64,000 nucleotides of DNA from Methanomicrobium sp. W14 (GTDB lineage Archaea; Halobacteriota; Methanomicrobia; Methanomicrobiales; Methanomicrobiaceae): assembly GCF_017875315.1 (NCBI RefSeq), contig NZ_JAGGMM010000003.1, forward strand, positions 496,001-560,000, read 5' to 3'. This document shows, one piece after another, positions 20,870 through 58,865 of the stretch; positions within the stretch are counted from its first letter, which is position 1; each line of letters starts with the position of its first letter. The translations under genes and the position numbers were made by a program. The notes under the pieces were generated by a model, which was not told the DNA's origin, made no database searches, and saw only the letters and a program-made list of their open reading frames with translations.

Positions 20870-20893
20870 TTAATATCTTATTTAGAGAAAAAC

Positions 20894-21223: not shown

Positions 21224-21310
21224 TAATCATAGTTTATAGTATACGATATTCTAAAAAATCATAGGATATAACCGACAATTTAAATATACTTAACAGCATA
21301 TAAACCATAA

Positions 21311-42179: not shown

Positions 42180-44387
42180 GTGATTGTTGAAATTATTTCA
42201 TCTATAATAATGTTATTTTTGACATTATTGATAATATTTTTAAGTGGTTTGGCGATATCTTGGATATTAATACCAGAAAAATATAAAAATTCGTACTTCT
42301 GGATTCTGATACCATTTTTGGGAATCTCTTGCTCTATATTAATTTTGCAAACCTTTATTTATTTGAATATCCCGTTATCAATATCTGTATTTCCATTTTT
42401 CATTTTGATTTTAATTGGAACTTATATTTATTATAAACAAAATAATCCCAAAACACCCAAAATTCCTAAAAAACTATTTATTCTTGCCCTTATTGTGATT
42501 CTATCAAATGGTATCGGATATTTTGCCTTGGGTCCATCAAATTATCTGGGATATGGATGGATTGATCAATACAATTACGTTGCTACGTCTCAATTTCTAA
42601 TAGATAGTCCGTTCAGTACATCTCTTGATCAGGTTGGTGAGATTCCTTATTTAGCAGAGGCAATTATAAAGAAAGATGATCGTATAGGTCAAAGTGTTTT
42701 AGAGGGTTATGTTGCAGTTTTATCCTTTCAGAATGCAAAGACAGCATATGGAGCAATTTCCCTATTAAGCCCATTATTAGTTTTTTTTGTTATATGGATT
42801 TATTCCAGACGGCTGATAAAAGATGAATGGGCACAATATGGTGCAGCAATATCAGCAGCGTGTATTCCGGGATTTGCATTAATTCACTTGCAGGATTTTT
42901 TTTCACAAGCGCTTGCAGTCCCATTTCTTTTAATTTTTCCACTAATTATATATTTCTCATTAAAAGAAAAAGATTGGCATTTTATTGCAATTGGCATTAT
43001 AATATTTGCAGGGAGTCACTCAATATACTCTGAATTTACACCATTACTTATAATTCTGGCATTTTTCGGCATGATATGGTATATTCTTCAAACAAAAGAG
43101 ATCCTCTCATCACTTTTGGTTTTTTTTTCAATAGTTCTCGGGGGATTGGTAATTAACGTGGGTTATATATTTAGGAGTTTCTCTGCTCTTACCAGAGGAA
43201 ATATACCAAATATATTACAGTCAATATTCCCATTTTCTGAAACTGTAGAAGGATTAGGATATTTATGGTTTGGTTATTCGGGACCACTATTGACATATTC
43301 TACATTAATTTTTATAGTGAATTTCTCCGCATTACTCCTTTCAATCGTTGCATATACAGGAATTATTAATTTAATGCGAAAACAAAAGGATGTAATAACT
43401 ATTCTTTTGTTCACAATATCATTATTCCCATTGGTACTTCTTTCTCAAGCAGAACCTTATCCATATCAATTTTACAAAATGCTGATGGCAGTATCTCCAT
43501 TATTGATGTTTGGTGTTTGGGTGTTATTATCTGGATTTTGGGAAAAGGAAGAAGATGATACAAACACCCAAATAAAAGATTTTCTTCACCCATATATATA
43601 TAAAATCCCAAAAATCGCTTTGATTTGTTTACTAATATCATCAGTAGTAATTTCTGGATGCCTTGCATCATCCAGCATAACTGGTGGGTATAGAAGTGCA
43701 GTAGAAACAGACAATACAAAAGAAATGATTGAACTCTACAATTATTTAGAAAATACTCAAGATCAAGATATTATTTTATCTATATCTCATCCATATCCTT
43801 TGGCTTGGGCAGCTTATCACGGAAGAAATGATCGAATTTTTTTTATAAATAGTGTAATGGGAGATGTTCCTCTTGAAAAAGTGTATTCTAAAAAGTTTCC
43901 ATTTAATAACATTTCACTATTTCCAGAAAATGCAACAAAAATAACATTCGGAGGAGAATACCCTCAAATGTCTCCAAAAAAAACAAAAGAAAACTTAATT
44001 GCTTTCATCGAAAATCCTCAAGGAATGGAGGGAACAGAAGGATCTGAATTTAATTGGCTTGGAAAAGAAATGGAAATATATCTATACTGGCAAGGTAGTA
44101 AAGAACAAAATATTAATTTGTCATATTTATCCATTCCAGGCATTGGTTACCCTGAAACCAACAAAAGAATTGTAAATATTTCAGTTGTTGAAGGAAAATC
44201 CCAAACAGAAAAAACAATTGAAACAGATGGAACAGAAACAGTATCAATTCCACTGATTATTCAACCAGGATTAAATGTTATAAAATTTAAAACGAGATAT
44301 CCTGAAAATGCCAGTGTAATAATTCCAGAAGACCCAAGGGATTTTTTAGTGCATATCTCACAAATGAAAATTACTGGAGAAAACTAA
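42180..44387 (+). CDS. large polytopic membrane protein with C-terminal soluble domain, possible GT-C enzyme
   Basis: Starts at GTG with GAGGT six bases upstream; the overlapping ATG is followed at once by TGA. The 735-residue protein has about 11-13 membrane helices, then a soluble domain from about residue 530 that ends in a beta-rich portion. A first loop contains GYGWIDQYNYVATSQFL, similar in placement to the acidic/aromatic loop of GT-C glycosyltransferases. The family is not recognised. It lies between the GtrA/B module and the rhamnan-type locus, within the AT-rich segment. Confidence 0.75.
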   Translation: MIVEIISSIIMLFLTLLIIFLSGLAISWILIPEKYKNSYFWILIPFLGISCSILILQTFIYLNIPLSISVFPFFILILIGTYIYYKQNNPKTPKIPKKLFILALIVILSNGIGYFALGPSNYLGYGWIDQYNYVATSQFLIDSPFSTSLDQVGEIPYLAEAIIKKDDRIGQSVLEGYVAVLSFQNAKTAYGAISLLSPLLVFFVIWIYSRRLIKDEWAQYGAAISAACIPGFALIHLQDFFSQALAVPFLLIFPLIIYFSLKEKDWHFIAIGIIIFAGSHSIYSEFTPLLIILAFFGMIWYILQTKEILSSLLVFFSIVLGGLVINVGYIFRSFSALTRGNIPNILQSIFPFSETVEGLGYLWFGYSGPLLTYSTLIFIVNFSALLLSIVAYTGIINLMRKQKDVITILLFTISLFPLVLLSQAEPYPYQFYKMLMAVSPLLMFGVWVLLSGFWEKEEDDTNTQIKDFLHPYIYKIPKIALICLLISSVVISGCLASSSITGGYRSAVETDNTKEMIELYNYLENTQDQDIILSISHPYPLAWAAYHGRNDRIFFINSVMGDVPLEKVYSKKFPFNNISLFPENATKITFGGEYPQMSPKKTKENLIAFIENPQGMEGTEGSEFNWLGKEMEIYLYWQGSKEQNINLSYLSIPGIGYPETNKRIVNISVVEGKSQTEKTIETDGTETVSIPLIIQPGLNVIKFKTRYPENASVIIPEDPRDFLVHISQMKITGEN

Positions 44388-44560: not shown

Positions 44561-45697
44561 TTAATCATTTTTATACACAGATTCATAGATTTGAAGAGTT
44601 TTTCTTGCAGTTTTCTCCCACGAAAATTTTTTTGCATTCCTAAAACCATTTTGCCTGAGGTCTTCCTTCAGGCTTTCATCGTCAACTGTTTTAATCAAGA
44701 GTTCTCTCAACTGATTTTCATCATGAGGATCAAAATAAAGGGCTGCATTGCCGCCAACCTCAGTCATTGAAGAAGTGTTTGATGTTATAACAGGTGCCCC
44801 GCAGGCCATAGCCTCAAGTATAGGAAGACCAAACCCTTCATATAAAGAAGGATAGACAAAAACATCAGCTGCAGAGTATAAACCCGGAAGGTCGTCTTCA
44901 TCAACGTATCCTATACGGCGAATATCTGAAGATTTATTTAATTCTATAATATCATCTATTTCTGAATTCAGCCACCCCTTTCCGCCTGCAATAACAAGCA
45001 AATGCCTTTTTTTTGTCGATTCAGGAAGACTGACATATGCCTTTACTAAAGTGATAAGATTTTTTCTTGGTTCATATGAACCTACGAAAAGAATAAAGCC
45101 TTTACTCAGTTTATATTTGTCAATTATTTTTTTCTGTTCATCCTGGCAGGAAGGTGAAAATATATCTTTTGCTGCAAGATAAGTAACTTTAATTTTATCA
45201 GGGTCTGCATCAAAGTACTTCACAAGTTCATTTTTACCGTGATTTGAAATAGTAATAATACAGTCGGCATTATTTACTGCATCAATAGTACCTTTAAGGC
45301 AGTGCTGCCTGTTTTCTTCGGTATGGCATTCAGGCAGTGCCTGAAAACTTACATCATAAATAGTCACTATAAGTTTTCCGTAATGATCTCTTGGAGTGCA
45401 AAATGTCGTCGAATGGAGGATATCAACATTACCGATTATATTTTTTCTTAAAAATTCAAAGTGCCACAAATAATCAATTATTTTTTTAGGCATTCTCTTA
45501 AGACGGATATGGAAATTTTTTTGCTTTGGAGCTTCAGCCGTTTTAAAATCCTGATGATAAATATAGTAAAAAAACGGATATAAAATATATTTATTTTTTT
45601 TATCGATTTTTGCAAGAGCATCCACAAGATTTGACGTGTAATACCCGACACCTGCCTTTTCCCCTACAGTAAGACTTATATCAATGCCAATCTTCAT
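44561..45697 (-). CDS. GT4 glycosyltransferase (WbpX/WbpY/MtfB-like)
   Basis: The start at 45697 is chosen because AGGA lies nine bases upstream; a TTG-like frame start at 45724 lies within the previous gene. About 378 residues in two Rossmann domains. The donor-binding E-x7-E appears as [18 protein letters not shown], and [11 protein letters not shown] and [24 protein letters not shown] are typical of this mannosyl/rhamnosyl-transferase group. It uses an activated sugar such as GDP-mannose or GDP-rhamnose on the cytoplasmic side. Last gene of the leftward polysaccharide locus. Confidence 0.88.
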
Positions 45698-45713
45698 TTT
45701 TATTTTCCTGGAT

Positions 45714-46622
45714 TTAATTAACAAAATAATGGAAAAAAGAATCGATATACCATTTTTTCCATCTCTGAAATTCTGAAAACGGAATTTTGTGATTGTACTG
45801 CAAAAATTTGAACGCTGACATTGTCGTCATACCAATCATAAAAAAAATATTTTTCAGCTTTGTATCACGTGAAACAAAATTATCCATGTAAATATGCGCA
45901 TATGCATAAACCCACGTTGAAGGGACATTACCCTTTCCAAAATGGTTTTTCATAACTTCAAGAACTTCTGCATGCGCTTCAAGCCTCTTGGACATCGTCT
46001 TGGTTTCCTGGTAAAACCTGGAATTTGCCAGATATTCAGGCAGGTAATCAAAACCTCCATACTCTTCCGCCACTCTTATCCAGTAATCATAATCCATGCA
46101 GAACTGAAGTTTGTCATCAAACAAACCTACAGTCTCAATGACTTCACGTTTCCAGAATGTCGTAGGCTGGCAGATATAACAGGTTTCAGCGAGACGATTA
46201 AAATCAAAAGGCTCGGTGGGATATCTTTCGATGACCTCGCCTTCAGCGGTTATATGATAACCTTCCCCGTATAACAGCTTTGCGTCAGGATTTTCCCTGA
46301 AATAATTCACAGCACGGCTGACAGCACCGGGAAGATAGGTATCGTCCGAATTGAGATAAGCAAGAATTTCACCCTTTGCCATGCGTAGACCCTTATTTAT
46401 GGCATCTGTCTGACCATTGTCCTTTTCCGAAAACCAGACAATACGCCCGTTGTATTTTTTCAGGACCTCAAGAGTCTCATCGGTAGAACCACCGTCCATA
46501 ACAATATATTCAATATTTGGATAATCCTGATTTAAAACGCTGAGAATGGTCTCTTCAATAAATTTTCCCTGGTTATATGAAGGGGTAACTACAGTGACCA
46601 GCGGCATTTCCTGGGATTTCAT
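45714..46622 (-). CDS. GT2 glycosyltransferase
   Basis: The 302-residue enzyme begins with VTVVTPSYNQGKFIEETI and has MDGGSTDETL and the metal-binding AYLNSDDTYLPGA (about residue 93), followed by CQPTTFWKREV. No membrane domain is obvious. The donor sugar is unknown. The ATG at 46622 follows the previous stop (TGA at 46623) without gap, so it is coupled to the GT4 gene before it. A candidate for adding the sugar that primes or decorates the exported polymer. Confidence 0.88.
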   Translation of the reverse strand: MKSQEMPLVTVVTPSYNQGKFIEETILSVLNQDYPNIEYIVMDGGSTDETLEVLKKYNGRIVWFSEKDNGQTDAINKGLRMAKGEILAYLNSDDTYLPGAVSRAVNYFRENPDAKLLYGEGYHITAEGEVIERYPTEPFDFNRLAETCYICQPTTFWKREVIETVGLFDDKLQFCMDYDYWIRVAEEYGGFDYLPEYLANSRFYQETKTMSKRLEAHAEVLEVMKNHFGKGNVPSTWVYAYAHIYMDNFVSRDTKLKNIFFMIGMTTMSAFKFLQYNHKIPFSEFQRWKKWYIDSFFHYFVN

Positions 46623-48206
46623 TCAGATTACTTCCATGTTAACAAAATCAGTTGGGTTTTCATTATTTTCAGACATTTTAAGTGATTCCAAAACCAGGGA
46701 AAGTTTGCGTTCATCTTCCCCGATACCTAGTTTTTTGGGAGAATATGATTTTTTTGAAATAATTTCAACGCTGCATTCTCCACTTTTTTCACAAATATCA
46801 GGTATTTCAAACCCAAAAGTATACTTTCCTATCTCCGGGATACCTATATTATATGTTTTTTTTCCATTAAGAATTACTTTTATTTTCATCGGATAATTTA
46901 CCGGAAGTTCCCCCCGAAGATTTATCCACAAATGACGGTAATTTTTTGCACCGCAATAAATAAACTTTACTTTGGAAAACCAACCGTCAGAATAAAGTCC
47001 ATAAAATCTATGAGAATCATTCTTACAGCATTTATCTGAACGCGAGTCGTGACTACAAACAGATCTGAAAAGATCCAAGTGCATCTCAGCAACTTTTTCA
47101 TAAGAATACAGCTTTGCCCTCTCTTTCCCTTTTAAAATCAGTTCATCACGCAGAGAACTATCTGATATAACTTTATGCATAGCCACGCATATATCCTGGG
47201 GGTCTTTTGGATCAAACAAATAAGCAGCATCACCTGCAATTTCCGGAATACTTGTAGTGTTTGAGGCAATTACCGGGCATTCCGATGCCATCGCTTCAAT
47301 TACCGGAATTCCAAATCCCTCAAAAAGAGAGGGAAATACAAGAGCCTTTGCGCATGCATACAATCCCGGCATATCCTCCTTATCAACATAGTCAAGAACA
47401 TGAACGCAATCCGTGAGTCTGTGTTCAGATATAAAATTCTGGATACTCCTGTTAACTCCAAAACCACTGCCTGTAAATATTAAATTTAAAGAGTCTGAAT
47501 ACCTTTTCCTATATTCTTTAAACGCTTCCAAAAGCATTAGATGGTTCTTGTGCTCCCAGGCATTTGCCGGGTACAAAAGGAAATTTTCAGGGAGATTATA
47601 CTTTTTTGAAACTAAACCTGCATTTTCAGAGGATTTCCCAAAATTATCTCCTGCTGCAAGATAAATAACTACAATCTTTTCCGGATCTATACCAAGTTTT
47701 TCTATAAAACTTTCTTTTGAAAATTCAGATATTGTAACAATTTTGGAAGCCTGCTCGCAAGAAGGCAGTATATATCCTTTTCTTAGGGCCAGCTCCTCCT
47801 TGGAAAAGTATTCAGGAAAATATTCATGCTGAAGGTCTGGAATCGTAACAATTCCGGGAATACTAAGTGGACGAGGATCAAGGCTTAAAAATGGGCAAAA
47901 CCACAGATCAAAATCATATTTTCTAATAATTTCGACTAAAGGGTCTTCAGACCTCTGATCGGCAGAACCAAAGATTTTTAATTTTGAACAAACACTACTC
48001 AAAATTCTGTAACTGCCGTGAACCGGAATATTATGACAATTCTTTGCAGTATATTTTAAAGAATTTTCATTATAAGGTGCCGTAATAAGGTAATACTGAT
48101 TAAAATTATCAATTAAAAACAGATGTTCAAGAAGATTCCGAAGATAAACCTCCATTCCTCCATTTTTTCCGGGTCTTAAAGGCAATAAATTGATTCCGAT
48201 TTTCAT
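46623..48206 (-). CDS. GT4 glycosyltransferase with an extra C-terminal beta domain
   Basis: The 527-residue protein begins GINLLPLRPGKNGGMEVYLRN. The donor motif is EGFGIPVIEAMASECPVIA (about residue 285), and the GT4 fold ends near residue 386. The next 140 residues form a separate domain with GLYSDGWFSKVKFIYC and many short beta-strand-like repeats, reminiscent of carbohydrate-binding sandwiches; I do not recognise its family. The stop of the methyltransferase gene and its ATG are adjacent. It probably adds mannose/rhamnose residues and may hold the growing chain through its extra domain. Confidence 0.87.
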   Translation of the reverse strand: MKIGINLLPLRPGKNGGMEVYLRNLLEHLFLIDNFNQYYLITAPYNENSLKYTAKNCHNIPVHGSYRILSSVCSKLKIFGSADQRSEDPLVEIIRKYDFDLWFCPFLSLDPRPLSIPGIVTIPDLQHEYFPEYFSKEELALRKGYILPSCEQASKIVTISEFSKESFIEKLGIDPEKIVVIYLAAGDNFGKSSENAGLVSKKYNLPENFLLYPANAWEHKNHLMLLEAFKEYRKRYSDSLNLIFTGSGFGVNRSIQNFISEHRLTDCVHVLDYVDKEDMPGLYACAKALVFPSLFEGFGIPVIEAMASECPVIASNTTSIPEIAGDAAYLFDPKDPQDICVAMHKVISDSSLRDELILKGKERAKLYSYEKVAEMHLDLFRSVCSHDSRSDKCCKNDSHRFYGLYSDGWFSKVKFIYCGAKNYRHLWINLRGELPVNYPMKIKVILNGKKTYNIGIPEIGKYTFGFEIPDICEKSGECSVEIISKKSYSPKKLGIGEDERKLSLVLESLKMSENNENPTDFVNMEVI

Positions 48207-49451
48207 TTAATCTCTCGCTAAATGCTTTTCTGCAATAACTGCATAATCTCCGTATTTCCATTGCCCACCATTGTCTTCAGTACATGGTTTGCCTGAACTG
48301 GTTTCAGCAGAAATATATTTAACTAAAATTTCTTTAAATCCAGATGATTGACACATGAAATAAACAAATTCCGGAAATAACGGTTTTTGGTGAGACGGAT
48401 CTAAAAAGAAAAATCTGAATGCCGAAAGGTTATAAGGATTGACTGTTTCAACAACAAAAATTCCCCCGTCTTTCAATTTATTATAAGCCAGCCTAAAAAA
48501 CTCGTGCAACTTTTCAAAAGGAAGATGCTCTACAACCTGCGCAGAAAAAATCCCATCCAAAGAATCGTCAGGTATTGAATTAAGATAATCAAATATATCA
48601 CTATGAATTACATTAAGACCCTTATTGCGGCATACTTGAATCATATCCTCATTATTATCAACACCGGTCACAAAAATGCCTTCAGCACTCAGTAATTCTA
48701 AAAATTCTCCCCTACCTGATCCGAGGTCCAGGACTTTATTTTTACCTTTAAAATAATCTACATACCAGCTTTGCCTTTGTTTTATAAGCTCCTCAGAACC
48801 CCTGAATAAGTTCTCAAAATCCAAATAATTAAATCTATCTGCTTTGGGGGAGAACCTGTTAAATAATTCAGATGATAATTGAGGTTTCAAATAGCAATCA
48901 ACTTCATTAATTTTCCTGAGAGAATTACTAATCTCAGTATCAATTTTCCTAAATTGATCACACGTATTTTTCAGGTCGGACTTTTGGGCAATACCAATAT
49001 TCTGAATATAGTTATTTAAATACTCATGACTTTTTATTAAACTATTAATCTGGGTATCAATTGTCTTAAACTGGTTATAAATATTATTCAGATCAGATTG
49101 TTGAACATTAACAACATTTTGAAGTTGATTATTCAAATCTTCATGACTTTTTATTAAACTATTAATCTGGGTATCAATTGTCTTAAACTGATCATTAATA
49201 TTGTCCTGAACCATCTCAATTATTCGAATGAGATGCTCATTAAAAATCGTCTGTCTTTTTACAAATAGATTTAATTTACTGCGATGATGAAATAAATCAG
49301 ATAAACAAGACCAATACGACTTTTTTCTGCAACCTGGTTTTAATATATAGTCGGGTGACTGGACATCACAATTATCTTTGAGATACTCAATATTATTCCG
49401 AATACCTGAATCCCAAATATCATTTAATTCAGGGTTTTTTTGATCACCCAT
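48207..49451 (-). CDS. class I SAM methyltransferase with N-terminal coiled coil (candidate chain terminator/ruler)
   Basis: The 414-residue protein has a long N-terminal helical region (about residues 65-185) in which FKTIDTQINSLIKSHE is repeated at residues 89 and 128, a 39-residue period, and partly again at 167. The methyltransferase domain follows, with VLDLGSGRGEFLELL at residue 240, the ITVGVD-like strand and AQVVEHLPF, ending in a FLDPSHQKPLFPEF segment. The combined coiled coil and methyltransferase resembles WbdD-type chain terminators, which cap a polysaccharide and set its length, but there is no kinase domain. Its genes are part of an ABC-exporter locus. Confidence 0.85.
   Translation of the reverse strand: MGDQKNPELNDIWDSGIRNNIEYLKDNCDVQSPDYILKPGCRKKSYWSCLSDLFHHRSKLNLFVKRQTIFNEHLIRIIEMVQDNINDQFKTIDTQINSLIKSHEDLNNQLQNVVNVQQSDLNNIYNQFKTIDTQINSLIKSHEYLNNYIQNIGIAQKSDLKNTCDQFRKIDTEISNSLRKINEVDCYLKPQLSSELFNRFSPKADRFNYLDFENLFRGSEELIKQRQSWYVDYFKGKNKVLDLGSGRGEFLELLSAEGIFVTGVDNNEDMIQVCRNKGLNVIHSDIFDYLNSIPDDSLDGIFSAQVVEHLPFEKLHEFFRLAYNKLKDGGIFVVETVNPYNLSAFRFFFLDPSHQKPLFPEFVYFMCQSSGFKEILVKYISAETSSGKPCTEDNGGQWKYGDYAVIAEKHLARD
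49024..49190 (-). repeat. intragenic direct repeat with a 117-base period
   Basis: Fifty identical bases occur at 49024-49073 and 49141-49190 inside the coiled-coil part of the methyltransferase gene, exactly 117 bases apart. This adds 39 residues without changing the frame. A third, more diverged unit lies further along the protein. Confidence 0.85.
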
Positions 49452-49462
49452 ATTAATTACCT

Positions 49463-50221
49463 TTAGTATTCTGTTTTAAGATTCTTATTTAATATTCCTT
49501 TTTCCAAAACATTAAATCTAAACCAAGATAGGATATTCCTATTTTGGTTCTTAGATTTGACTAAAAGAGCACATAATAGTCCTGCCGCTGCAACTGCCCC
49601 ATTATCGTTATATAATGTATTTTCAAGATCTTTCCTATTACAACTCTGCCATCCGTCATTATAGATATAAAAATCTTCCTTCTCTACTGTCCATGGAAAA
49701 GAGGTTTTTAATTTATCCCACCTACATTTATCGTAATGAATAAACCATCCATAATCCTGAAATTTACCATATGGCACAGTAATAACAACTTTCCCGCCGG
49801 GCTTAGTGATTCGGTATATTTCCCGAAGTGCACGTATATCTCCACGTTTTTCCTCCTCACCGGCAAAACCTGTATATATCGTATTATCTTTTCCAATATG
49901 CTCTATTGTAGAAATACAAAAAATTAAATCAAAAAAATTATCTGCAAATTTTGTTTTTCTGATGTCTCCAACATGAGGAATAATTCCGTCAACTTTTTTA
50001 TCAGTAATATCCAGTCCATGAAGTTCAGGAATTTTTAAATTTAGTAATTCGATTAAGTACCTTTCCTCAGCATGCGCAAATCCAATGTCTAATACCTTTT
50101 GTTCGTTGTGGTACTGGCTCATTGTCCAAGGAATCTCAATGCACCTTTCGGAATCACCAGCACCATAATGAGCAAAAGGCAACTGATCTGCACCAGTAGA
50201 TTTCTCTTTGCAAAATTTCAT
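49463..50221 (-). CDS. SAM-dependent methyltransferase, second of the pair
   Basis: The 252-residue enzyme has a Rossmann core with VLDIGFAHAEERYLIELL as motif I and the strand ELHGLDI. The segment FDLIFCISTIEHIG and the GGKVVITVPYG loop follow. The N-terminus AHYGAGDSERCIEIPW is unlike usual methyltransferases. A TATA box at 50245-50253, with no ribosome site, indicates its own promoter and a leaderless start. It may O-methylate a sugar of the polymer or a precursor. It precedes the coiled-coil methyltransferase gene by 11 bases. Confidence 0.82.
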   Translation of the reverse strand: MKFCKEKSTGADQLPFAHYGAGDSERCIEIPWTMSQYHNEQKVLDIGFAHAEERYLIELLNLKIPELHGLDITDKKVDGIIPHVGDIRKTKFADNFFDLIFCISTIEHIGKDNTIYTGFAGEEEKRGDIRALREIYRITKPGGKVVITVPYGKFQDYGWFIHYDKCRWDKLKTSFPWTVEKEDFYIYNDGWQSCNRKDLENTLYNDNGAVAAAGLLCALLVKSKNQNRNILSWFRFNVLEKGILNKNLKTEY

Positions 50222-50600: not shown

Positions 50601-51638
50601 TTATCCGCCGATATAATCAATTGGATCTTCTATCCAATCGGGTTGCAATTCATCCACAGGCATGTATGTTGAACATTTTTTACACGAATCAGGAATATTC
50701 TTATCAGAATCCCAGAATTCTTTACACTTTTTTGAATTAAATAATGATTCCAGAGAACGATCAATTACCGATCCAAGCAACAAATCCTTAGCTGAACTAT
50801 CTGAACAAACACACAAAGAAACATCACCATTAACACAGATTTTTATTGAGATAAGTGGTCTGAAACATGGATTGGTTATTTTGGGCATTTTCTTCCATTC
50901 TGCATCATCAGATAATATGGGTAATTCCTGATCAAGTAATGATCCCCATGTTGTATATACTGTCATATATTGAAAAGGAATTTTTTTTGAAAAATTTTTA
51001 TTAATCCAAGAATCTATTTCATCTGAAGTTCTGTTTTTTAACAATCTGAATCCAAAGACAATATTCTCAGTAGGAGATAAATCTACAATTCTGCGAATTG
51101 AAGAAATACACCTTTCATAAGTATTACATTGCGTAATTTTTGAATATTCATCTGAATCTAATCCATATATCGAGACATAAACCCTTTTTAATTTTTTTAA
51201 TATATAATACAAATCCTCATCTTCCCATTTCTCTGAACCAATTCCATTTGTGGTTACAGATAAACCAGTTATCTGAGGCATTTTTTCTATAATTTTTATC
51301 CTTTCTAATAACAAATTATCCAAAAATACTTCCCCAGGGGAAGGAGTCAAGGATATCATCCCCCCGCCAATATTTGCATAATCTAAGGTAACTTTCTGAA
51401 ATATGGACAAAGGCATAACAGTTTTTTTTGATGTTTGATATTGATATGCGCAGAATATGCAATTATGATTGCAATAATTTATTGTTTCGATATGTATCAT
51501 CAGGGGTCTTGACATCACTTCATTACGTAAGGCATTTCGATAGAACTTATATAATAAAGAATTATTCTTTTTTTTATAATAACATTTTATTTTGCATTGA
51601 TCGTTTAGATTACCGGAAATTGATTTAAATACATCCAT
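50601..51638 (-). CDS. radical SAM protein with SPASM-like C-terminal cluster domain
   Basis: The ATG at 51638 directly follows the wzt stop; a GTG at 51647 is an overlapping alternative. The about 345-residue enzyme has CNHNCIFCAY, the CxxxCxxC motif that binds the radical SAM iron-sulfur cluster (about residue 57). A C-terminal region of clustered cysteines (CFRP, CVNGDVSLC, SCKKCSTY) fits a SPASM or twitch domain with auxiliary clusters. It could catalyse epimerisation, dehydrogenation or methylation of a sugar or lipid. Such a protein between wzt and methyltransferase genes is not something I know from bacterial loci. Confidence 0.85.
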   Translation of the reverse strand: MDVFKSISGNLNDQCKIKCYYKKKNNSLLYKFYRNALRNEVMSRPLMIHIETINYCNHNCIFCAYQYQTSKKTVMPLSIFQKVTLDYANIGGGMISLTPSPGEVFLDNLLLERIKIIEKMPQITGLSVTTNGIGSEKWEDEDLYYILKKLKRVYVSIYGLDSDEYSKITQCNTYERCISSIRRIVDLSPTENIVFGFRLLKNRTSDEIDSWINKNFSKKIPFQYMTVYTTWGSLLDQELPILSDDAEWKKMPKITNPCFRPLISIKICVNGDVSLCVCSDSSAKDLLLGSVIDRSLESLFNSKKCKEFWDSDKNIPDSCKKCSTYMPVDELQPDWIEDPIDYIGG

Positions 51639-51639
51639 A

Positions 51640-52881
51640 TTAATCACTTATTACACTAAAAGCTGGTTTTATATTGAATACACCACCATATAAAATAGAA
51701 TTATTATTAACAATTACTTTTAATATTACCATGTCATGGGCCATAAATAAATAGTCTTCATATAACCCTTTTCCTATTGGTTTATCTGCAATTCCAAGTG
51801 AAAAAGAATAATCTCCAGGACATAACGGGACATTCATTTTAAATTGGACATGCAGAATAGTATTTGGATCATAGCATGAAGACCTCCATCCCAACCACCA
51901 CGAACTGGTATCAAAAATTACTTGCCCAAATTTATTTCTAATTGTAAAACCGATGTGAGGTTCTTTCAGAACTCTACTTGATTTAAACTTTACATCCAAA
52001 ATGAGATCTTCTTCACTAACAATTGAATCAATTACTTCTCCACCTTTAGAAAGCAATTTCATGCTTAGAATTTCAATAGATGAGTCCTTAAGATCAGAAT
52101 GGTTTTGCCATCCACTTTTAGCAGTACTTTCTATTTTCAATTCTTCTTTATTTCCTTTATGAGATTTCTTTAAAAGAACATTCTGATAATAATCAACTAC
52201 TTCCTTGGTAAAACCTCCAATTACAAAATTTCCATGATCCAGCATAATCGCCGAATCGCATAAAATCTTCACTGCATTCATGTCATGCGAAACAAAAATA
52301 ATTGAACCACCCCTATCCTTGAACGCCTGGATGGCTCTCATGCACTTCTGCTGAAAATATGCGTCACCGACTGACAAAGCCTCATCAACCAGAAAACAGG
52401 CGGGTTCCGCATGAATTGCTATTGAAAAGCCAAGACGCATAAGCATTCCGGAGGAATACGTCTTAATAGGGTCGTTTATGGCATCGCCGAGTTCGGTAAA
52501 TTCTATTATATCACTCTTCTTTTCGTCAAGTTCGGTTTTGCCCATTCCAAGCATTGTTCCGTTCATGTATATGTTTTCAACACCTGAAAGTTCCGGGTTA
52601 AAACCTGTTCCAAGCTCCAGAAGCCCCGTAACCTTTCCGGTAACAGTAACTTTTCCCTCATCCGGAATTACGACTCCCTGAAGAATCTTCAAAAGCGTGG
52701 ATTTACCTGCACCGTTTTCACCCACAATTCCAAGCGTTTCACCGTCCGCAACAGAGAAGGATATGTGGGACAAAGCCTGAAGCTCCTTGTGGTACTTCTT
52801 TCGAAGTACAATTTCTTTGAGCCTGTCAGCAGGAGAACGGTAGATTTTGTATTCCTTGCTTACATTTTCAACGGTTATCAT
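51640..52881 (-). CDS. wzt: polysaccharide ABC exporter ATPase with C-terminal carbohydrate-recognition domain (Wzt)
   Basis: The 413-residue protein has the ABC motifs GENGAGKSTLLKIL (Walker A, about residue 60), YSSGMLMRLGF (signature) and FLVDEALSVGD (Walker B). Residues about 260-413 form a beta-rich domain with the Wzt_C look: STAKSGWQNHSDLKDSSIEI, FTIRNKFGQVIFDTSSWW, PGDYSFSLGIA. In bacterial O9a-type systems this domain recognises the capped chain end. A GAGGTG ribosome site overlaps the wzm stop region. It provides energy for the Wzm permease encoded just upstream. Confidence 0.93.
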   Translation of the reverse strand: MITVENVSKEYKIYRSPADRLKEIVLRKKYHKELQALSHISFSVADGETLGIVGENGAGKSTLLKILQGVVIPDEGKVTVTGKVTGLLELGTGFNPELSGVENIYMNGTMLGMGKTELDEKKSDIIEFTELGDAINDPIKTYSSGMLMRLGFSIAIHAEPACFLVDEALSVGDAYFQQKCMRAIQAFKDRGGSIIFVSHDMNAVKILCDSAIMLDHGNFVIGGFTKEVVDYYQNVLLKKSHKGNKEELKIESTAKSGWQNHSDLKDSSIEILSMKLLSKGGEVIDSIVSEEDLILDVKFKSSRVLKEPHIGFTIRNKFGQVIFDTSSWWLGWRSSCYDPNTILHVQFKMNVPLCPGDYSFSLGIADKPIGKGLYEDYLFMAHDMVILKVIVNNNSILYGGVFNIKPAFSVISD

Positions 52882-52893
52882 TTAAAACCCACC

Positions 52894-53661
52894 TCACATG
52901 AAATCCCTTATATCCTTCTCAAGCTTTTTGAAAATCCAGAACGAAACAAAAAGCATGAAAATACTCAGAAGCAGAACGTACGCAAGAAACGTGAAACCCG
53001 GGACTTCATTGTACACGAATATCGACTGGTAGCCGTTTACAATAGCGGTCATCGGGTTCCACACTATAACAGACTTTGCAAAATCAGGAAGGATGTCAAA
53101 GACATAGACGATTGGTGTAAACCAGAACCAGAACAGTAAAACCACCTGAATAGCCTCGCGGAGGTCTTTCAGGAAAACCATGAAATTTGCCAGAAAGAAC
53201 CCGAGGGAATAAGCAAAAAGTACCTGAATTAAATATATCAGCGGTACAAATATTAAAAGCCACGAAAACTGATATCCCGCATATATGAGGAATATGAAAT
53301 AAAACAGCATGGTCCCTGCAAATATTACAGTCTCTGATACGACAATATACAACGGGAAATATTTCAGGTCTGTGTTAAGCTTCGTCAAAATATGACGGTT
53401 GTCAGGAAAAACAGTCGCAATTCTTGCGAACATGCTTGAAAAAGCGGTCCAGGGAAGAATACCTGCACAGATATATATGCCGTAGCTGAAGACATCAGAC
53501 GAACCGGGAAGTTTTGCACCCATAATCCCGGAGAAAATAAACGTATAAACTATAATATTTGCAAGAGGAAAAATAAAATTCCAGGCAAATCCCAAAAGAG
53601 AGCCTGAATATCTCTCCGTAAGGTCCCTTTTTGCAAAATCCATTACCAGACTATAATTCAA
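52894..53661 (-). CDS. wzm: polysaccharide ABC exporter permease (Wzm)
   Basis: Starts at TTG at 53661 (GGGGA nine bases upstream); ATG at 53643 is possible. The 255-residue ABC-2 family permease has six membrane helices and the family start AKRDLTERYSGSLLGFAWNF, which leads into the first helix. With Wzt it exports a preformed polymer from the cytoplasm across the membrane. The stop is 12 bases before the wzt start. Gap of 118 bases to the upstream GT4 gene. Confidence 0.92.
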   Translation of the reverse strand: MNYSLVMDFAKRDLTERYSGSLLGFAWNFIFPLANIIVYTFIFSGIMGAKLPGSSDVFSYGIYICAGILPWTAFSSMFARIATVFPDNRHILTKLNTDLKYFPLYIVVSETVIFAGTMLFYFIFLIYAGYQFSWLLIFVPLIYLIQVLFAYSLGFFLANFMVFLKDLREAIQVVLLFWFWFTPIVYVFDILPDFAKSVIVWNPMTAIVNGYQSIFVYNEVPGFTFLAYVLLLSIFMLFVSFWIFKKLEKDIRDFM

Positions 53662-53779: not shown

Positions 53780-54859
53780 TTATCGGTTGAAAACCTCTGA
53801 AGCAACATTTTTTATTCCTTCTTCAAACTTATCCAGGGAAAATATCCCGGCCCTTTCAACACATTTATCATGGTATTTTCCAGGTGAATATGATATTTTT
53901 TTTACAGCATTAACAACTGATTCTGCATCAGCTCCAACCAGGTAACCCGTCTCCCCGTCAACAACGGTTTCCTTAAACCCGCCTTCATTAACCGCAACAA
54001 CCGCCTTGCCTGATGCCATCGCCTCAACAGGAGTCATCCCGAAGTCCTCATCAACGGCCGTTGCAACAAACCCTCTGCACCGCGAGTACAAATCCAGTAT
54101 CTTATCTTCAGGTACTTCTCCGATAATCTTCACGTTTGAAGGCAGATTTTTTGATATTTTTCCTGCGTATCCTGCCGCCTGGTCACCTTTTGCATAGCCT
54201 CCGGCAATTACAAGATTTTCATCAGGCAATCTTCTGAAAGCTTCAATCTGAAGTTCAATTCTTTTTTCAGGGTACAGCCTGTTCACGGAAAGCCAGAAGT
54301 CTCCATATTCCCTGCACTGAAATCTGGACGTATCTACAGGAGGATATATGACAACAGAATCACGGTTGTAGTATTTTCTTATCCTTTCCCTGACATTCTC
54401 CGAATTTGCCGCAATCCTTTCAATATACTTCAAAGACCGCCTGTCAAAAAAGCGGCCGAAAAAAACCCACAGCTTAAAGGCCTGTCTTCTCAGAAAAGGC
54501 TGTTTTTTACAGTATTCAGAGTACAAATCATAAAAAGCCCTCACAGGAGTATGGCAGTACCATAAATTAGGACGATGCCTTTTTGAGGCAAAATGCGCCC
54601 AGTTGCCGCTGAATATAAAAAAATCATAATCCTTTGAAAAATCGCAGAGAGAAAATTTCAGTGCCGCAGACATCTGCTTTAAAAGGGGAAAATGGATGGT
54701 CCTTCCAAGACTTATACATGAAATGTTATTCCCCATTAGTTCAACGGCGTCCGTATCGGTTGTTATAATGTCGGCATCAAGAACCTTTGCCATTTCTATA
54801 ACAACCTTCTCCCCGCCTCCGACAGCACCGAAATAGTCATGAAAAATGGCAGTTTTCAA
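53780..54859 (-). CDS. GT4 glycosyltransferase (WbpZ/WbaZ-like)
   Basis: Starts at TTG with AGGTG about eight bases upstream. The 359-residue enzyme has FHDYFGAVGGGEKVVIE at the N-terminus, WYCHTPVRAFYDLY in the acceptor region, and EDFGMTPVEAMASGKAVVAV as the donor-binding E-x7-E (about residue 275). This matches the WbpZ/WbaZ-type rhamnosyl/mannosyl transferases often found next to gmd and wzm/wzt. It would add a D-rhamnose or mannose unit to the lipid-linked polymer. Twenty bases separate it from gmd. Confidence 0.9.
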   Translation of the reverse strand: MKTAIFHDYFGAVGGGEKVVIEMAKVLDADIITTDTDAVELMGNNISCISLGRTIHFPLLKQMSAALKFSLCDFSKDYDFFIFSGNWAHFASKRHRPNLWYCHTPVRAFYDLYSEYCKKQPFLRRQAFKLWVFFGRFFDRRSLKYIERIAANSENVRERIRKYYNRDSVVIYPPVDTSRFQCREYGDFWLSVNRLYPEKRIELQIEAFRRLPDENLVIAGGYAKGDQAAGYAGKISKNLPSNVKIIGEVPEDKILDLYSRCRGFVATAVDEDFGMTPVEAMASGKAVVAVNEGGFKETVVDGETGYLVGADAESVVNAVKKISYSPGKYHDKCVERAGIFSLDKFEEGIKNVASEVFNR

Positions 54860-54878: not shown

Positions 54879-55931
54879 TTAGTCCTTCTTCCACCACTTC
54901 TCTGAAAACTTCTTTTGGATTATTTCATCACCCTCTCCGGGCGCCTCGAGCCCCGCACTCCTCATGTCAGAGTCAACCATTATCTTCACAAGGTCCTTAA
55001 AGTTCACCTTCGGCTTCCACCCCAGAACCTTCTCCGACTTTGAAGGGTCTGCCCTTAAAGCATCAACCTCGGTTGGCCTGAAATATTTCGGGTCGATTCT
55101 TACATGGACGTCTCTGTCAAGGTCTGCATATGAAAAGGCTTCGTCAAGGAATTCGTTTATGGAATGAGTCTCGCCTGTCCCGATTACAAAATCATCAGGT
55201 CTGTCAGCCTGAAGAATCATCCACATAGCCTCGACATATTCAGGCGAAAATCCCCAGTCGCGTTTTGCCTCGAGATTTCCAAGGTAAAGGTACTTCTCTT
55301 TCTTTGCAAGTATCGAAGCGATTCCGCGGGTAATCTTTCTTGTGACAAAAGTCTCACCGCGGCGCGGGGACTCGTGGTTGAAGAGAATACCGTTCGATGC
55401 AAACATGTTGTAGCCCTCGCGGTAGTTTTTGACCATCCAGTAGGAATAGACTTTGGCGCATGCATAAGGGCTTCTCGGGACAAAAGCCGTGTTTTCATCC
55501 TGCGGGGGCTTAGCACCGCCGAACATCTCGCTTGAAGACGCCTGGTAAAACCTTACCTTACACCTGCTCCTCCTTATAGCTTCAAGAATCCTTGTCGTCC
55601 CAAGTCCTGTAACGTTTCCCGTATATTCAGGTATGTCAAAACTTACCCTGACATGGCTCTGGGCCCCGAGATGGTAGATCTCATCGGGCTTTACATTGTA
55701 TATGATACCACTTATCTGCTCACAGTCAGACAAATCGCCATAATGAAGGTAGAGTTTTGCATCAGACTCATGCGGGTCGACATATATATGATCAATTCTT
55801 GATGTGTTAAATGTCGATGACCGCCTTATCAGGCCGTGCACCTCATAACCCTTGTGCAGGAGAAGTTCTGCCAGGTAAGATCCGTCCTGGCCCGTGATTC
55901 CGGTAATAAATGCTTTTTTCTGTTCTGCCAT
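54879..55931 (-). CDS. gmd: GDP-mannose 4,6-dehydratase
   Basis: Start ATG at 55931 with GGAG upstream. The 350-residue enzyme has the NADP-binding [30 protein letters not shown], and the catalytic [12 protein letters not shown] (Tyr and Lys), followed by [16 protein letters not shown]. It converts GDP-D-mannose to GDP-4-dehydro-6-deoxy-D-mannose, the precursor of D-rhamnose and L-fucose. With rmd encoded upstream the product is most likely GDP-D-rhamnose. No mannose-1-phosphate guanylyltransferase gene lies in this locus. Confidence 0.96.
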
Positions 55932-56031: not shown

Positions 56032-56997
56032 TTACGCAGATATTCTTTTATCCCAGTATTCATACACCGACCTTAAGCTGTCTTCAAATGAAACCTTAGG
56101 CTTCCACCCGGTTTCATCATGGATCTTTCTAAAATCACCTACAATCCTTGGATTGTCTATGGGGCGGATCTGCGAGCTTTCCTGGCGGACGTCAACATCT
56201 GTTCCGTACATCTCTGAAAGAATATTTATGATGTCCAGAATGGACCTCCCGACACCGCTGCATATATTGTAGACCCCTCCTCTTTTTCCTTTTTCAAGAA
56301 GAAGACAGTATGCCGAAACAACATCATGGACATCTACAAAGTCGCGTATTATAGAGCCGTTTCCGATATGAAGAATTGGCTCCTGTAGACCTTTTTTTAT
56401 CATCGCAAACTGTTTTGCAATCGAGCTTACGACAAATTTGTCCCTCTGGCCCGGGCCGCAGTGGTTAAAAGAGCGTGTACAGCAGATATCCAGGCCATAC
56501 CCCCGTGCATAGATTCCTGCAAGAAGCTCCTGCGAGACCCTTGCTACGGCATACGGGTTTTCCGGGCTTTGTTTTCTTGTTTCCGAAAGGGGAAGATCAT
56601 TTTCCGAAACAATTCCATACTGCTCGGATGAGCCTACAGAAAGGACTCTTGCACCGTTGTCAATACGTCTTACCGTGTCGATTACATTCAGGAAAATATT
56701 GGTATTGTTCATGAAAGAGTCTACAGGAGTCTTCCAGCTCTCCGCAACGGAACTCTGTGCTGCAAGATGGAGAATATAGTCCGGCTCCGTGTCCTCAATA
56801 ATAGACTTAACACGCGGCAGATCATTAAGGTCGGCCTCATAGTGTTTAAGGCAGTCAGGCTCAAAGCCGACAAAGTCCCATGAAGGCATATGACGGCTTA
56901 TCCCGATTATTTCAAGATTTTTCCCTGCGGATTTAAGATAATCCACAAAATGTCCGCCGACAAAGCCGCTTATTCCTGTAATAAGTATTCTTTTCAT
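56032..56997 (-). CDS. rmd: GDP-4-dehydro-6-deoxy-D-mannose reductase (Rmd-like)
   Basis: Start ATG at 56997 with GGGGA nine bases upstream. The 321-residue SDR begins RILITGISGFVGGHFVD. The catalytic site reads NPYAVARVSQELLAG, so Arg replaces the usual Lys of YxxxK. It continues TRSFNHCGPGQRDKFVVSS, a strong match to Rmd-type proteins. It reduces the Gmd product to GDP-D-rhamnose. The alternative, GDP-fucose synthase, is less likely because of the Rmd-like signature. Gene order rmd-gmd-wzm-wzt mirrors the Pseudomonas A-band locus. Confidence 0.88.
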   Translation of the reverse strand: MKRILITGISGFVGGHFVDYLKSAGKNLEIIGISRHMPSWDFVGFEPDCLKHYEADLNDLPRVKSIIEDTEPDYILHLAAQSSVAESWKTPVDSFMNNTNIFLNVIDTVRRIDNGARVLSVGSSEQYGIVSENDLPLSETRKQSPENPYAVARVSQELLAGIYARGYGLDICCTRSFNHCGPGQRDKFVVSSIAKQFAMIKKGLQEPILHIGNGSIIRDFVDVHDVVSAYCLLLEKGKRGGVYNICSGVGRSILDIINILSEMYGTDVDVRQESSQIRPIDNPRIVGDFRKIHDETGWKPKVSFEDSLRSVYEYWDKRISA

Positions 56998-57155: not shown

Positions 57156-58295
57156 TTATTTCTCTGAACTTTTACCTTCATAAACGCAAATCAGCCTCTC
57201 AGAAATCTTCTCCCACCCATAGTCGCACGCATAAGAGAAAGTCTCACCCTTTACCTCAGGTTCCTTCTTACTGCAAAGAGCCTTTATGACTGCATCACCA
57301 AGCGATCCGGGAGACAGTTCTGCAACGTAACCGTTTACACCTTCGCACACAAGTTCACGTGCGGCGTTCGAAGGGTGATTCACTGTAACAACGAAAAGAC
57401 CGCAGGCCATAGCCTCGCAGACGGTTATCCCGAAACCCTCCCTTACAGAAGGAAGAACAAAAACCTTTGAAGCCTTCATCGCTGAAATCACACCTCTTTC
57501 ATCAGTAAAAAATCCCGAAAAAGAAACTGTGCCAAAAAGTCCCAGTTCCTGCGAAAGTTTCTCAAGATTTAGTTTTTCCGGGCCGTCCCCGACAATAAGA
57601 GCCTTTACGCACGGAAACTTTTCACGGACAAAGACCAGTGAACGGAGAAGAAGGTCTACATTTTTTTCGGCGATAAGCCGTCCTGCAAATATCAGGTCGG
57701 ATGAATATTCATACGAAGGAGGAGTATTTTTTATTTTATCAACGTTAATCCCGTTCGGAATTACATGAACACCTTTTATGCCTGACTTTTCAAGACCCTC
57801 TGCCGTAAGATGCGATACAGCAACTCTCCCGTCACCCAAAAAGGCTGTCATACGCTCTATAAACTTTCCGAACACCCCAAAAAGTCCAAGGTACCTGTAC
57901 CAGTATTCTCCCCAGAACTCATGCCACGTTACAACAAGGCGGCACCGGTTTATTTTTGATACAAAAAACGATGAAAAAACTGAAAAATACGGAAACGCCT
58001 GGCAGTCGATTACTGATACCTTCTCCCTTAAAAGAGGAACAAAAAGAAAACAGGCAAAATAAAAAGCCTCAAATATCGAACGTCTTCCCTTTACGTACAA
58101 ATCTTTTTTTCTGCATACACCGTGGTATATTATTCCGTCCTTTTTTACGACGTTTGGGCCGTCCCAGTACTTCATCCCGAATATATGGACCTCATGGCCT
58201 TTTTCTGCCATCCAAAGCGAAAGCTCATATATCCTTTTTTCAGCCCCTCCCTTGACGTAAGGGTACACCGCATCGTAGACAAACGCAATCTTCAT
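57156..58295 (-). CDS. GT4 glycosyltransferase
   Basis: The 379-residue enzyme has the two-domain GT4 layout: IAFVYDAVYPYVKGGAEKRI at the start, VVTWHEFWGEYWYR, VHVIPNGINVDKI, and the donor-site EGFGITVCEAMACGLFVV (about residue 290). It is the first gene of the leftward locus, 158 bases upstream of rmd, and it faces the PIN-domain gene. It is probably a mannosyl- or rhamnosyltransferase. The donor cannot be proved from sequence. Confidence 0.88.
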   Translation of the reverse strand: MKIAFVYDAVYPYVKGGAEKRIYELSLWMAEKGHEVHIFGMKYWDGPNVVKKDGIIYHGVCRKKDLYVKGRRSIFEAFYFACFLFVPLLREKVSVIDCQAFPYFSVFSSFFVSKINRCRLVVTWHEFWGEYWYRYLGLFGVFGKFIERMTAFLGDGRVAVSHLTAEGLEKSGIKGVHVIPNGINVDKIKNTPPSYEYSSDLIFAGRLIAEKNVDLLLRSLVFVREKFPCVKALIVGDGPEKLNLEKLSQELGLFGTVSFSGFFTDERGVISAMKASKVFVLPSVREGFGITVCEAMACGLFVVTVNHPSNAARELVCEGVNGYVAELSPGSLGDAVIKALCSKKEPEVKGETFSYACDYGWEKISERLICVYEGKSSEK

Positions 58296-58421: not shown

Positions 58422-58865
58422 ATGAAAATATACCTTGATGTTTGTTCCCTTTGCAGACTCTTTGATGATCAAACTTCGTATAGAATCAGAATGGAGACTG
58501 AAGCCGTAATTGTAATTCTCAGCAGGTGCATGACAGACTGGAAATTAATAGGAAGTGAAGTTATAGAATACGAAATTGAACAAATGCCAGATGAAGAAAG
58601 AATTGAGGCAATAAAAAATTTGCTGAGTTTCTCAGATGAAAAAGTATTAATCACAACTGAAATAATCTCCCGCGCCCGCGTATTTCACAAATTAGGCATT
58701 GATTCTTTTGATGCCCTGCATCTTGCATCTGCTGAAAGTACCGGTGCAGTATTCCTGACAACGGATGATTTACTTATCAAACACATTAATAAAGATGAAG
58801 GAAACATTCATATTAAAGTCAGTAATCCACTAAGTTGGCTTATGGAGGAAACACATGGAAACTAA
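58422..58865 (+). CDS. PIN-domain ribonuclease-like toxin
   Basis: The 147-residue protein has the PIN acidic residues in IYLDVCSLCRLF, in VIEYEIEQ, in DSFDALHLAS and in FLTTDDLLIK, consistent with a VapC-type metal-dependent RNase. Its 3' end overlaps the next small gene by 11 bases. The weak ribosome site and lone TATA-like stretch upstream leave the level of expression unclear. Toxin-first order with a 66-residue partner is not the usual VapBC order. Confidence 0.8.
   Translation: MKIYLDVCSLCRLFDDQTSYRIRMETEAVIVILSRCMTDWKLIGSEVIEYEIEQMPDEERIEAIKNLLSFSDEKVLITTEIISRARVFHKLGIDSFDALHLASAESTGAVFLTTDDLLIKHINKDEGNIHIKVSNPLSWLMEETHGN

What the first reader, a model, noticed from the sequence alone, without database searches (positions are those of the whole stretch)
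48207..49451. Coiled-coil methyltransferase as a possible molecular ruler and chain cap
Seen: a 39-residue unit (117 bp, 50 bp identical) is tandemly repeated in a long N-terminal helical region in front of a class I methyltransferase, within a Wzm/Wzt locus. Known: bacterial WbdD uses a coiled coil to set O-antigen length and a methyl/phosphate cap to end the chain, which the Wzt C-terminal domain then reads. Inference: repeat gain or loss would tune polymer length. The domain order is reversed and no kinase is present.
Basis: partly seen in the sequence, partly recalled or inferred. Interest (0 to 1): 0.78.

Follow-up and report, generated by a model that had tools for sequence, protein, structure and literature searches.

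The report
Archaeal coiled-coil glycan-capping methyltransferase, repeat-length ruler
A methane-producing archaeon carries an enzyme that probably caps and stops a growing surface sugar chain while held on a rod about 20 nanometres long, and in its relatives that rod grows or shrinks by whole repeated units, so nature has already built the length series needed to test whether such rods measure sugar chains.

Summary
ORF 48207-49451(-) encodes 414 aa with 2.2-2.7 tandem copies of a 39-residue unit (50 bp exact). AlphaFold2 predicts one unbroken helix, residues 57-188 (~20 nm), followed by a class I methyltransferase. The operon encodes GDP-D-rhamnose enzymes, Wzm, a Wzt with cap-reading domain, and glycosyltransferases; the genome is a Methanomicrobiales archaeon. 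In 60 relatives, all 10 genomes with a strong homologue also have Wzt_C (p 4e-8), 1-2 genes apart. A wider family in archaea and bacteria shares an unnamed N-terminal module, a coil of variable length and a C-terminal methyltransferase; the module predicts a Wzt_C neighbour (36/40 versus 4/33). Coil tandem duplications, with non-homologous units of 11-60 aa, occur in 14/42 family clusters versus 1/37 other coil proteins of this genome. Close relatives differ by exactly 22, 33 or 38 coil residues with almost no other indel. Two catalytic domains are swapped onto the module, and one sister genome has a canonical-polarity methyltransferase-coil protein, also tandemly repeated, at the same spot. 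Best explanation: a reversed-polarity chain terminator whose coil is a molecular ruler. Capping activity, membrane or polymerase docking and length control are inferred, not shown.

The parts
48207..49451 (-). coiled-coil class I methyltransferase, 414 aa: N-terminal module, long helix, C-terminal SAM methyltransferase
49197..49439 (-). diverged copy of the conserved N-terminal module ('modA', no Pfam model matched); matches profile positions 43-125, so the first ~42 positions are missing or degenerate
   Evidence: E 2e-23
48888..49283 (-). codons for the predicted continuous helix, residues 57-188 (132 aa, ~20 nm); hydrophobic period 3.56, permutation p < 5e-4
49074..49190 (-). 39-aa repeat copy 1 (residues 88-126)
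48957..49073 (-). 39-aa repeat copy 2 (residues 127-165)
48923..48956 (-). partial, diverged third copy (from residue 166, QFRKIDTEIS...)
48228..48827 (-). methyltransferase domain (residues 209-408); closest solved structure 3dli from Archaeoglobus fulgidus
49463..50221 (-). second class I methyltransferase (MT2); its homologue is fused in frame in front of the coiled-coil methyltransferase in relative G007
50601..51647 (-). radical SAM / SPASM protein between wzt and the methyltransferases
51640..52881 (-). Wzt: ABC ATPase plus C-terminal carbohydrate-binding domain (Wzt_C); closest solved relative Aquifex aeolicus Wzt
52894..53661 (-). Wzm, ABC-2 permease
53780..54859 (-). GT4 glycosyltransferase conserved upstream of wzm in relatives
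54879..55931 (-). GDP-mannose 4,6-dehydratase (GMD)
56032..56997 (-). SDR, probable GDP-6-deoxy-4-keto-mannose reductase (RMD); best PDB match 2pk3, E 1.8e-75, so GDP-D-rhamnose is the likely donor
46623..48206 (-). GT4 glycosyltransferase with C-terminal extension (527 aa)
45714..46622 (-). GT2 glycosyltransferase
44561..45724 (-). GT4 glycosyltransferase
57156..58295 (-). GT4 glycosyltransferase, first gene of the run on this strand

Best explanation
It is the chain terminator of an archaeal, O-antigen-like, ABC-transporter-dependent glycan pathway. Glycosyltransferases of the operon extend a lipid-linked chain, probably rich in D-rhamnose, at the cytoplasmic face of the membrane. The N-terminal module holds the protein at the membrane or polymerase, a helix of about 20 nm (a coiled-coil oligomer) projects into the cytoplasm, and the methyltransferase sits at its far, C-terminal end. 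Only a chain long enough to reach the far end is methylated; the methyl group stops growth and is read by the C-terminal domain of Wzt, which licenses export by Wzm/Wzt. Coil length therefore sets minimum or modal chain length, and evolution changes it by in-frame gain or loss of whole repeat units. Shown here (sequence and prediction): architecture, continuous predicted helix, genomic coupling to Wzt_C, tandem-unit changes between relatives, modular swapping of catalytic domains. Inferred: capping activity, docking, oligomerisation, length control.
For: Continuous helix 57-188 at pLDDT 85-97 with coil-like hydrophobic period 3.56, 0 of 2000 permutations as strong. Intact SAM motif; MTase domain matches crystal structure 3dli, Z 29.9. 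Co-occurrence: all 10 strong-homologue genomes lie among the 15 of 60 with Wzt_C (p 4e-8), gene 1-2 genes downstream of wzt. Across loci, 36 of 40 module-bearing proteins versus 4 of 33 without it lie beside a Wzt_C (p 1e-11). Coil spacing varies 45-199 aa (CV 0.30) while the MTase span hardly varies (CV 0.02). Tandem coil duplications in 14/42 clusters versus 8/458 neighbouring ORFs and 1/37 own-genome coil ORFs. Close pairs differ by 22, 33 and 38 coil residues with almost no other indel. Module+coil carries a second, unrelated MTase type in four genomes. A sister genome has a canonical-polarity MTase-coil protein with 28-aa tandem repeats at the same place after wzt. Aquifex Wzt, the closest solved relative, binds 3-O-methyl-mannose/rhamnose caps (PMC9445017). 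WbdD precedent: coil indels shift O-antigen length (PMC5082667).
Against: No activity, glycan or length data. Close relative G004 lacks the N-terminal module yet keeps coil repeats, and in the window protein the module is degenerate. Residues forming the methyl pocket of Aquifex Wzt (Thr346, Ala348, His350, Trp362) read Ser, Gly, Ala, Tyr in the window Wzt, so the cap may differ. WsaE methylates independently of chain length in vitro (PMC2943079). Several bacterial homologues without the module have no Wzt within the DNA held. Tandem repeats may expand neutrally in any tolerant coil. AlphaFold2 was run on a monomer only.
Confidence: 0.6

Rival explanations
1. Capping methyltransferase, but the coil is only an oligomerisation or tethering domain. 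Its length drifts neutrally because a coil tolerates slippage of whole units; chain length is set otherwise (enzyme stoichiometry, export rate).
For: Tandem duplications are easily generated in repetitive coil DNA; coil spacing ranges 45-199 aa with no visible optimum; WsaE needs no ruler to methylate in vitro (PMC2943079).
Against: Other coil proteins of the same genome rarely show such duplications (1/37; the coil detector is crude). Disordered linkers in the same proteins show almost no indels in the close pairs. Coil terminators of characterised pathways do control length (PMC5082667, PMC11231755).
Confidence: 0.22
2. The methyltransferase decorates the repeat unit or a precursor (internal methylation), and Wzt_C reads another feature, for instance a product of MT2 or the radical-SAM protein.
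For: A second methyltransferase and a radical-SAM protein lie between wzt and this gene; MT2 was found only in loci whose Wzt_C has Tyr in place of Trp362; MT2 is fused to the coil methyltransferase in G007.
Against: MT2 is absent from most relatives while the coil methyltransferase stays beside Wzt_C. A long coil between module and enzyme is not expected of a decorating enzyme.
Confidence: 0.12
3. Unrelated function: a methyltransferase for another surface molecule or protein that lies in the cluster by chance or by general function.
For: Class I methyltransferases are common in glycan clusters, and sequence alone does not name the substrate.
Against: Statistical coupling to Wzt_C in two independent samples and fixed gene order.
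Confidence: 0.06

Closest known systems
E. coli O9a / O8 WbdD (Klebsiella O3 / O5)
   Same: SAM methyltransferase and long coil in one polypeptide, beside Wzm/Wzt with cap-reading Wzt_C; coil ~20 nm; coil indels change chain length (PMC5082667); the O8 enzyme is methyl-only (PMC3482155).
   Different: Order is MTase-(kinase)-coil-membrane region in WbdD, module-coil-MTase here. The family profile matches WbdD only over 38 positions round the SAM motif, E 0.0035. Host is an archaeon.
Klebsiella O7 ORF6, O4 ORF7, O12 WbbB terminators (PMC11231755)
   Same: Coil molecular ruler with a terminating enzyme at one end, in a Wzm/Wzt pathway; the O7 methyltransferase, like this one, resembles CgnL (7pd7).
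   Different: Terminator domain N-terminal in all of them; O12 and O7 carry polymerase modules in the same protein; caps are Kdo or methyl-phosphate.
E. coli O101/O162 methyltransferase (PMC13168486)
   Same: Methyl-only terminator with a coil, proposed ruler.
   Different: Methyltransferase N-terminal, coil C-terminal.
Geobacillus WsaE, S-layer glycan pathway (PMC2943079)
   Same: 2-O-methyl cap on a rhamnan exported by Wzm/Wzt in an organism without LPS.
   Different: N-terminal MTase fused to two glycosyltransferase domains; no chain-length dependence in vitro.
Aquifex aeolicus Wzm/Wzt (PMC9445017)
   Same: Closest solved relative of the window Wzt; reads a 3-O-methyl cap on a D-rhamnose/D-mannose polymer.
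   Different: Methyl-pocket residues are changed in the window Wzt.
PDB 3dli, Archaeoglobus fulgidus methyltransferase (2008)
   Same: Excised MTase domain (numbered 253-473) of a full-length family member with module and coil, L131.
   Different: Deposited only as a SAM-dependent methyltransferase; module and coil are not in the crystal.

Membership tests
coiled-coil chain terminators of ABC-transporter glycan pathways (polymerase-terminator-ruler systems) | capping-type catalytic domain in the same polypeptide as a long coil | tested here: met
   MTase with intact SAM motif and continuous helix 57-188; capping activity itself not testable
coiled-coil chain terminators of ABC-transporter glycan pathways (polymerase-terminator-ruler systems) | locus encodes Wzm and a Wzt with C-terminal carbohydrate-binding domain | tested here: met
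coiled-coil chain terminators of ABC-transporter glycan pathways (polymerase-terminator-ruler systems) | terminating enzyme at the coil end distal to polymerase/membrane | not testable with these tools
   order module-coil-MTase fits, but what the module binds is unknown; no transmembrane helix
coiled-coil chain terminators of ABC-transporter glycan pathways (polymerase-terminator-ruler systems) | coil length sets chain length | not testable with these tools
   natural length variants exist; no glycan data
coiled-coil chain terminators of ABC-transporter glycan pathways (polymerase-terminator-ruler systems) | coil is a parallel oligomer | not tested
   only monomer prediction available; sequence period 3.56 fits a coil
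WbdD family | order MTase - (kinase) - coil - C-terminal membrane/polymerase region | tested here: not met
   order reversed; no Pfam kinase
WbdD family | sequence homology to WbdD | tested here: inconclusive
   profile hit to 4ax8/4azs over 38 SAM-motif positions only, E 0.0035
WsaE | MTase fused to two rhamnosyltransferase domains | tested here: not met
   414 aa; Pfam shows only the MTase
Wzt with cap-reading CBD (for the neighbour gene) | PF14524 domain, full-length alignment to Aquifex Wzt | tested here: met
Wzt with cap-reading CBD (for the neighbour gene) | methyl-pocket residues of Aquifex Wzt (Thr346, Ala348, His350, Trp362) | tested here: not met
   Ser, Gly, Ala, Tyr in the window; Thr-Val-Ala-x-His and Trp are kept in several relatives such as L020 and L090

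The most novel reading that the evidence does not exclude
A widespread family of molecular-ruler chain terminators of reversed polarity (module-coil-enzyme), found in archaea as well as bacteria, in which evolution sets surface-glycan length digitally by adding and removing whole coil repeats while both ends stay fixed, and in which different capping enzymes are exchanged on the same anchor-and-ruler module. It would be the first molecular ruler for a surface glycan recognised in Archaea, as far as the held papers show.
Probability: 0.45. Interest if true: 0.82.

Novelty: new variant of a known kind. Interest (0 to 1): 0.66.

Why it matters
Ruler control of glycan length has been shown in a few enterobacterial O-antigens, mainly with engineered coils. 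This family offers natural allelic series: pairs of relatives whose terminators are nearly the same except for exactly 2 or 3 coil units. If glycan size follows coil size in them, the ruler model is confirmed by evolution itself, in cells without LPS. It also gives a testable role to a methyltransferase structure solved in 2008 (3dli), points to O-antigen-like capped glycans in methanogens, and provides an anchor-and-ruler module that naturally accepts different capping enzymes.

Tried and rejected
Tandem Repeats Finder at default threshold: no array, since copies are few and diverged; replaced by an ungapped offset score with codon shuffles. The search for related loci with the single protein: nothing; it worked with alignment A1. 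The first AlphaFold2 model from 11 sequences had a break near residues 152-156; the 50-sequence model closed it, so the break is treated as a shallow-alignment artefact. Rejected: WbdD orthologue (order reversed, homology confined to the SAM motif); pseudogene (frame open, motif intact). Unit lengths as sums of 7, 11 and 15 (13 of 14) against a background of 0.55-0.66: suggestive, not used as evidence. The control set of 458 ORFs contains two runs of N counted as repeats, which makes the comparison conservative. A strong amphipathic membrane helix in the N-terminal module was sought and not clearly found: the best moments lie at the start of the coil, so membrane binding remains a guess. Prediction 'every Wzt_C locus has a coil terminator': met in G033 (module plus other MTase) and G013 (canonical polarity), not met in G041 and G042. 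The 2019 bioinformatic survey of chain terminators (doi 10.1093/glycob/cwz066) is not held, so it could not be checked whether reversed-polarity members were already listed there. Two final searches for archaeal or Methanosarcina Wzt glycans found no relevant paper.

Full report
WHAT IS THERE. The gene is 48207-49451 on the minus strand, 414 aa. A 117-bp unit occurs as two full copies and a diverged partial third, offset exactly 117, with 50 identical bp between the best-matching stretches. Codon shuffling of the coil 2000 times never gave a tandem score above 15; the gene scores 64. The C-terminal half is a class I methyltransferase with an intact SAM-binding motif. The nearest solved structure is 3dli from Archaeoglobus fulgidus (E 2e-46; Z 29.9 on the model). 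The printed 3dli sequence reappears in locus L131 within a 485-aa protein that also has the N-terminal module and a coil, so that structure is one domain of a family member.

HOST AND OPERON. The genome is 2.54 Mb in 6 contigs. Its family includes G012, whose contig of 447,392 bp equals in length that of a named Methanomicrobiaceae archaeon (L105), so a methanogen of the order Methanomicrobiales is inferred. The run of minus-strand genes reads: GT4, RMD-like reductase, GDP-mannose 4,6-dehydratase, GT4, Wzm, Wzt, radical SAM, methyltransferase MT2, coiled-coil methyltransferase, GT4, GT2, GT4. The reductase is closest to GDP-6-deoxy-D-lyxo-4-hexulose reductase 2pk3 (E 1.8e-75) and the dehydratase is a clear GMD, so GDP-D-rhamnose is the likely donor (inference). 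Wzt aligns along its length with Aquifex aeolicus Wzt, whose carbohydrate-binding domain reads a 3-O-methyl cap on a D-rhamnose/D-mannose chain (PMC9445017).

STRUCTURE. AlphaFold2 with a 50-sequence alignment predicts one uninterrupted helix at residues 57-188, pLDDT about 85-97, then a low-confidence linker (188-204), then the methyltransferase. The 132 residues correspond to about 19.7 nm; the WbdD coil holds its enzymes about 20 nm from the membrane (PMC5082667). Hydrophobic residues in the helix repeat every 3.56 residues (0 of 2000 permutations as strong). The prediction is of a monomer; oligomerisation was not tested.

GENOMIC COUPLING. Among 60 related genomes, 10 have a strong homologue and 15 have a Wzt_C domain; all 10 are among the 15 (hypergeometric 4e-8), and the gene lies one or two genes after wzt. 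A wider harvest shows the architecture in archaea and in bacteria including Nitrospirae, Deltaproteobacteria, Paenibacillus and Clostridia (weaker module scores). The conserved N-terminal module (about 125 aa, consensus ...INVEEIMxKIRENIRRRK...NNSYFISSHRPxxGKxLVKGRxLVHGEVRRYVDP...KQxEFN) matched no Pfam model. Proteins with it sit beside a Wzt_C in 36 of 40 cases; proteins of the same methyltransferase family without it in 4 of 33 (p 1e-11). In the sampled phylum no genome showed more than one copy.

THE COIL CHANGES BY WHOLE UNITS. Across 48 relatives the module-to-methyltransferase spacing runs from 45 to 199 aa (CV 0.30) while the methyltransferase span hardly varies (CV 0.02). In 14 of 42 clusters (75% identity in the N-terminal part) the gene contains an in-frame tandem DNA duplication. 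Most units are non-homologous and of different lengths (11, 14, 15, 19, 20, 26, 39, 45, 60 aa, and 21 aa in G004), so they arose independently; in L118 the repeat lies in the linker rather than the coil. Controls: 8 of 458 neighbouring ORFs, 5 of 614 ORFs in 800 kb of the own genome, and 1 of 37 of those with a predicted long coil (p 2e-11, 2e-14, 4e-4). The coil detector is crude and the close pairs are few. In close pairs the ends stay the same and the coil steps: L061 versus L115 differ by exactly 22 residues (two 11-mers) and L128 versus L114 by exactly 33 (three 11-mers), with no other internal indel; L082 versus L116 differ by 38 (two 19-mers) plus one 2-residue indel; L119 versus L109, with methyltransferases 93% identical, differ by 87.

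MODULARITY. In G033, G248, G094 and G085 the same module and coil carry a different methyltransferase, in G248 with four 26-aa coil repeats. In G007 the second methyltransferase of the window operon is fused in frame in front of the module; other relatives have a different enzyme fused there. In G013, a sister genome without the reversed protein, the gene after wzt encodes a 702-aa protein of canonical order: N-terminal methyltransferase, an unassigned middle part, and a C-terminal coil of three 28-aa repeats, 98% identical in DNA. The same place is thus filled by terminators of either polarity, both with tandemly repeated coils.

MECHANISM. The best reading is a chain terminator with a ruler: polymerisation at the membrane, capping by methylation at the far end of a ~20-nm rod, recognition of the cap by Wzt_C, export. 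Capping, docking and length control are inferred from WbdD and the Klebsiella systems (PMC3482155, PMC5082667, PMC11231755). In all four characterised terminators whose order I could read (WbdD; Klebsiella O4, O7, O12) and in the E. coli O101 protein (PMC13168486) the terminator domain is N-terminal; here it is C-terminal. The absence of a kinase is not unusual, as E. coli O8 is methyl-only (PMC3482155).

WEAK POINTS. The window copy of the module is degenerate and close relative G004 lacks it. The methyl pocket of the window Wzt differs from Aquifex at four positions, though an aromatic residue remains at Trp362, while relatives such as L020 and L090 keep Thr-Val-Ala-x-His and Trp. MT2 was found only in loci of the altered type, so the cap in this organism may need MT2 or carry a different methyl. 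Neutral drift of a tolerated coil is the main rival (0.22). Two of 15 genomes with Wzt_C have no coil terminator in the DNA read (G041, G042). The 2019 survey of chain terminators could not be read, so priority for the reversed order is not claimed.

VERDICT. Observation confirmed; interpretation supported at the level that sequence and prediction allow, and strengthened by natural length variants. New variant of a known kind. Interest 0.66.

Noticed in passing
L208:6192-8297 (-), genome G013: Canonical-order terminator candidate in a sister archaeon: N-terminal methyltransferase, unassigned middle domain (possibly a kinase, as in Klebsiella O7 ORF6; not tested), C-terminal coil with three 28-aa repeats 98% identical in DNA, beside a Wzt with Wzt_C.
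   Followed up: partly
L135, L160, L163, L164: The module+coil is joined to a different class I methyltransferase (motif ...WSKFYNxEIT...LLEVGVGTATMSIYFS...FSQGTMEHF...) in four archaeal genomes: a second capping-enzyme type on the same module.
   Followed up: partly
window 49463-50221 and 50601-51647: MT2 and a radical-SAM/SPASM protein sit between wzt and the coil methyltransferase; MT2 was found only in loci whose Wzt_C has Tyr in place of the cap-stacking Trp, suggesting a different cap chemistry.
   Followed up: partly
L080:2-2116: Contig labelled Candidatus Nanosynbacter encodes an archaeal-type family member with a beta-rich insert in the N-terminal module and a 45-aa coil duplication (97% DNA identity); the label is probably a binning error.
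   Followed up: no
window 42180-44387 (+): 735-aa protein with many hydrophobic stretches and no Pfam hit, next to the operon on the opposite strand; a protein of similar size lies at the matching place in G004 (L018 16508-18739). Candidate transferase or ligase for the exported glycan.
   Followed up: no
window 20890-21090 and 22880-23080: Imperfect direct repeat of about 180 bp flanking a reading frame that looks like an archaeal AAA ATPase (about 21310-22660).
   Followed up: no
window 58422-58865 (+): PIN-domain protein at the upstream edge of the operon.
   Followed up: no
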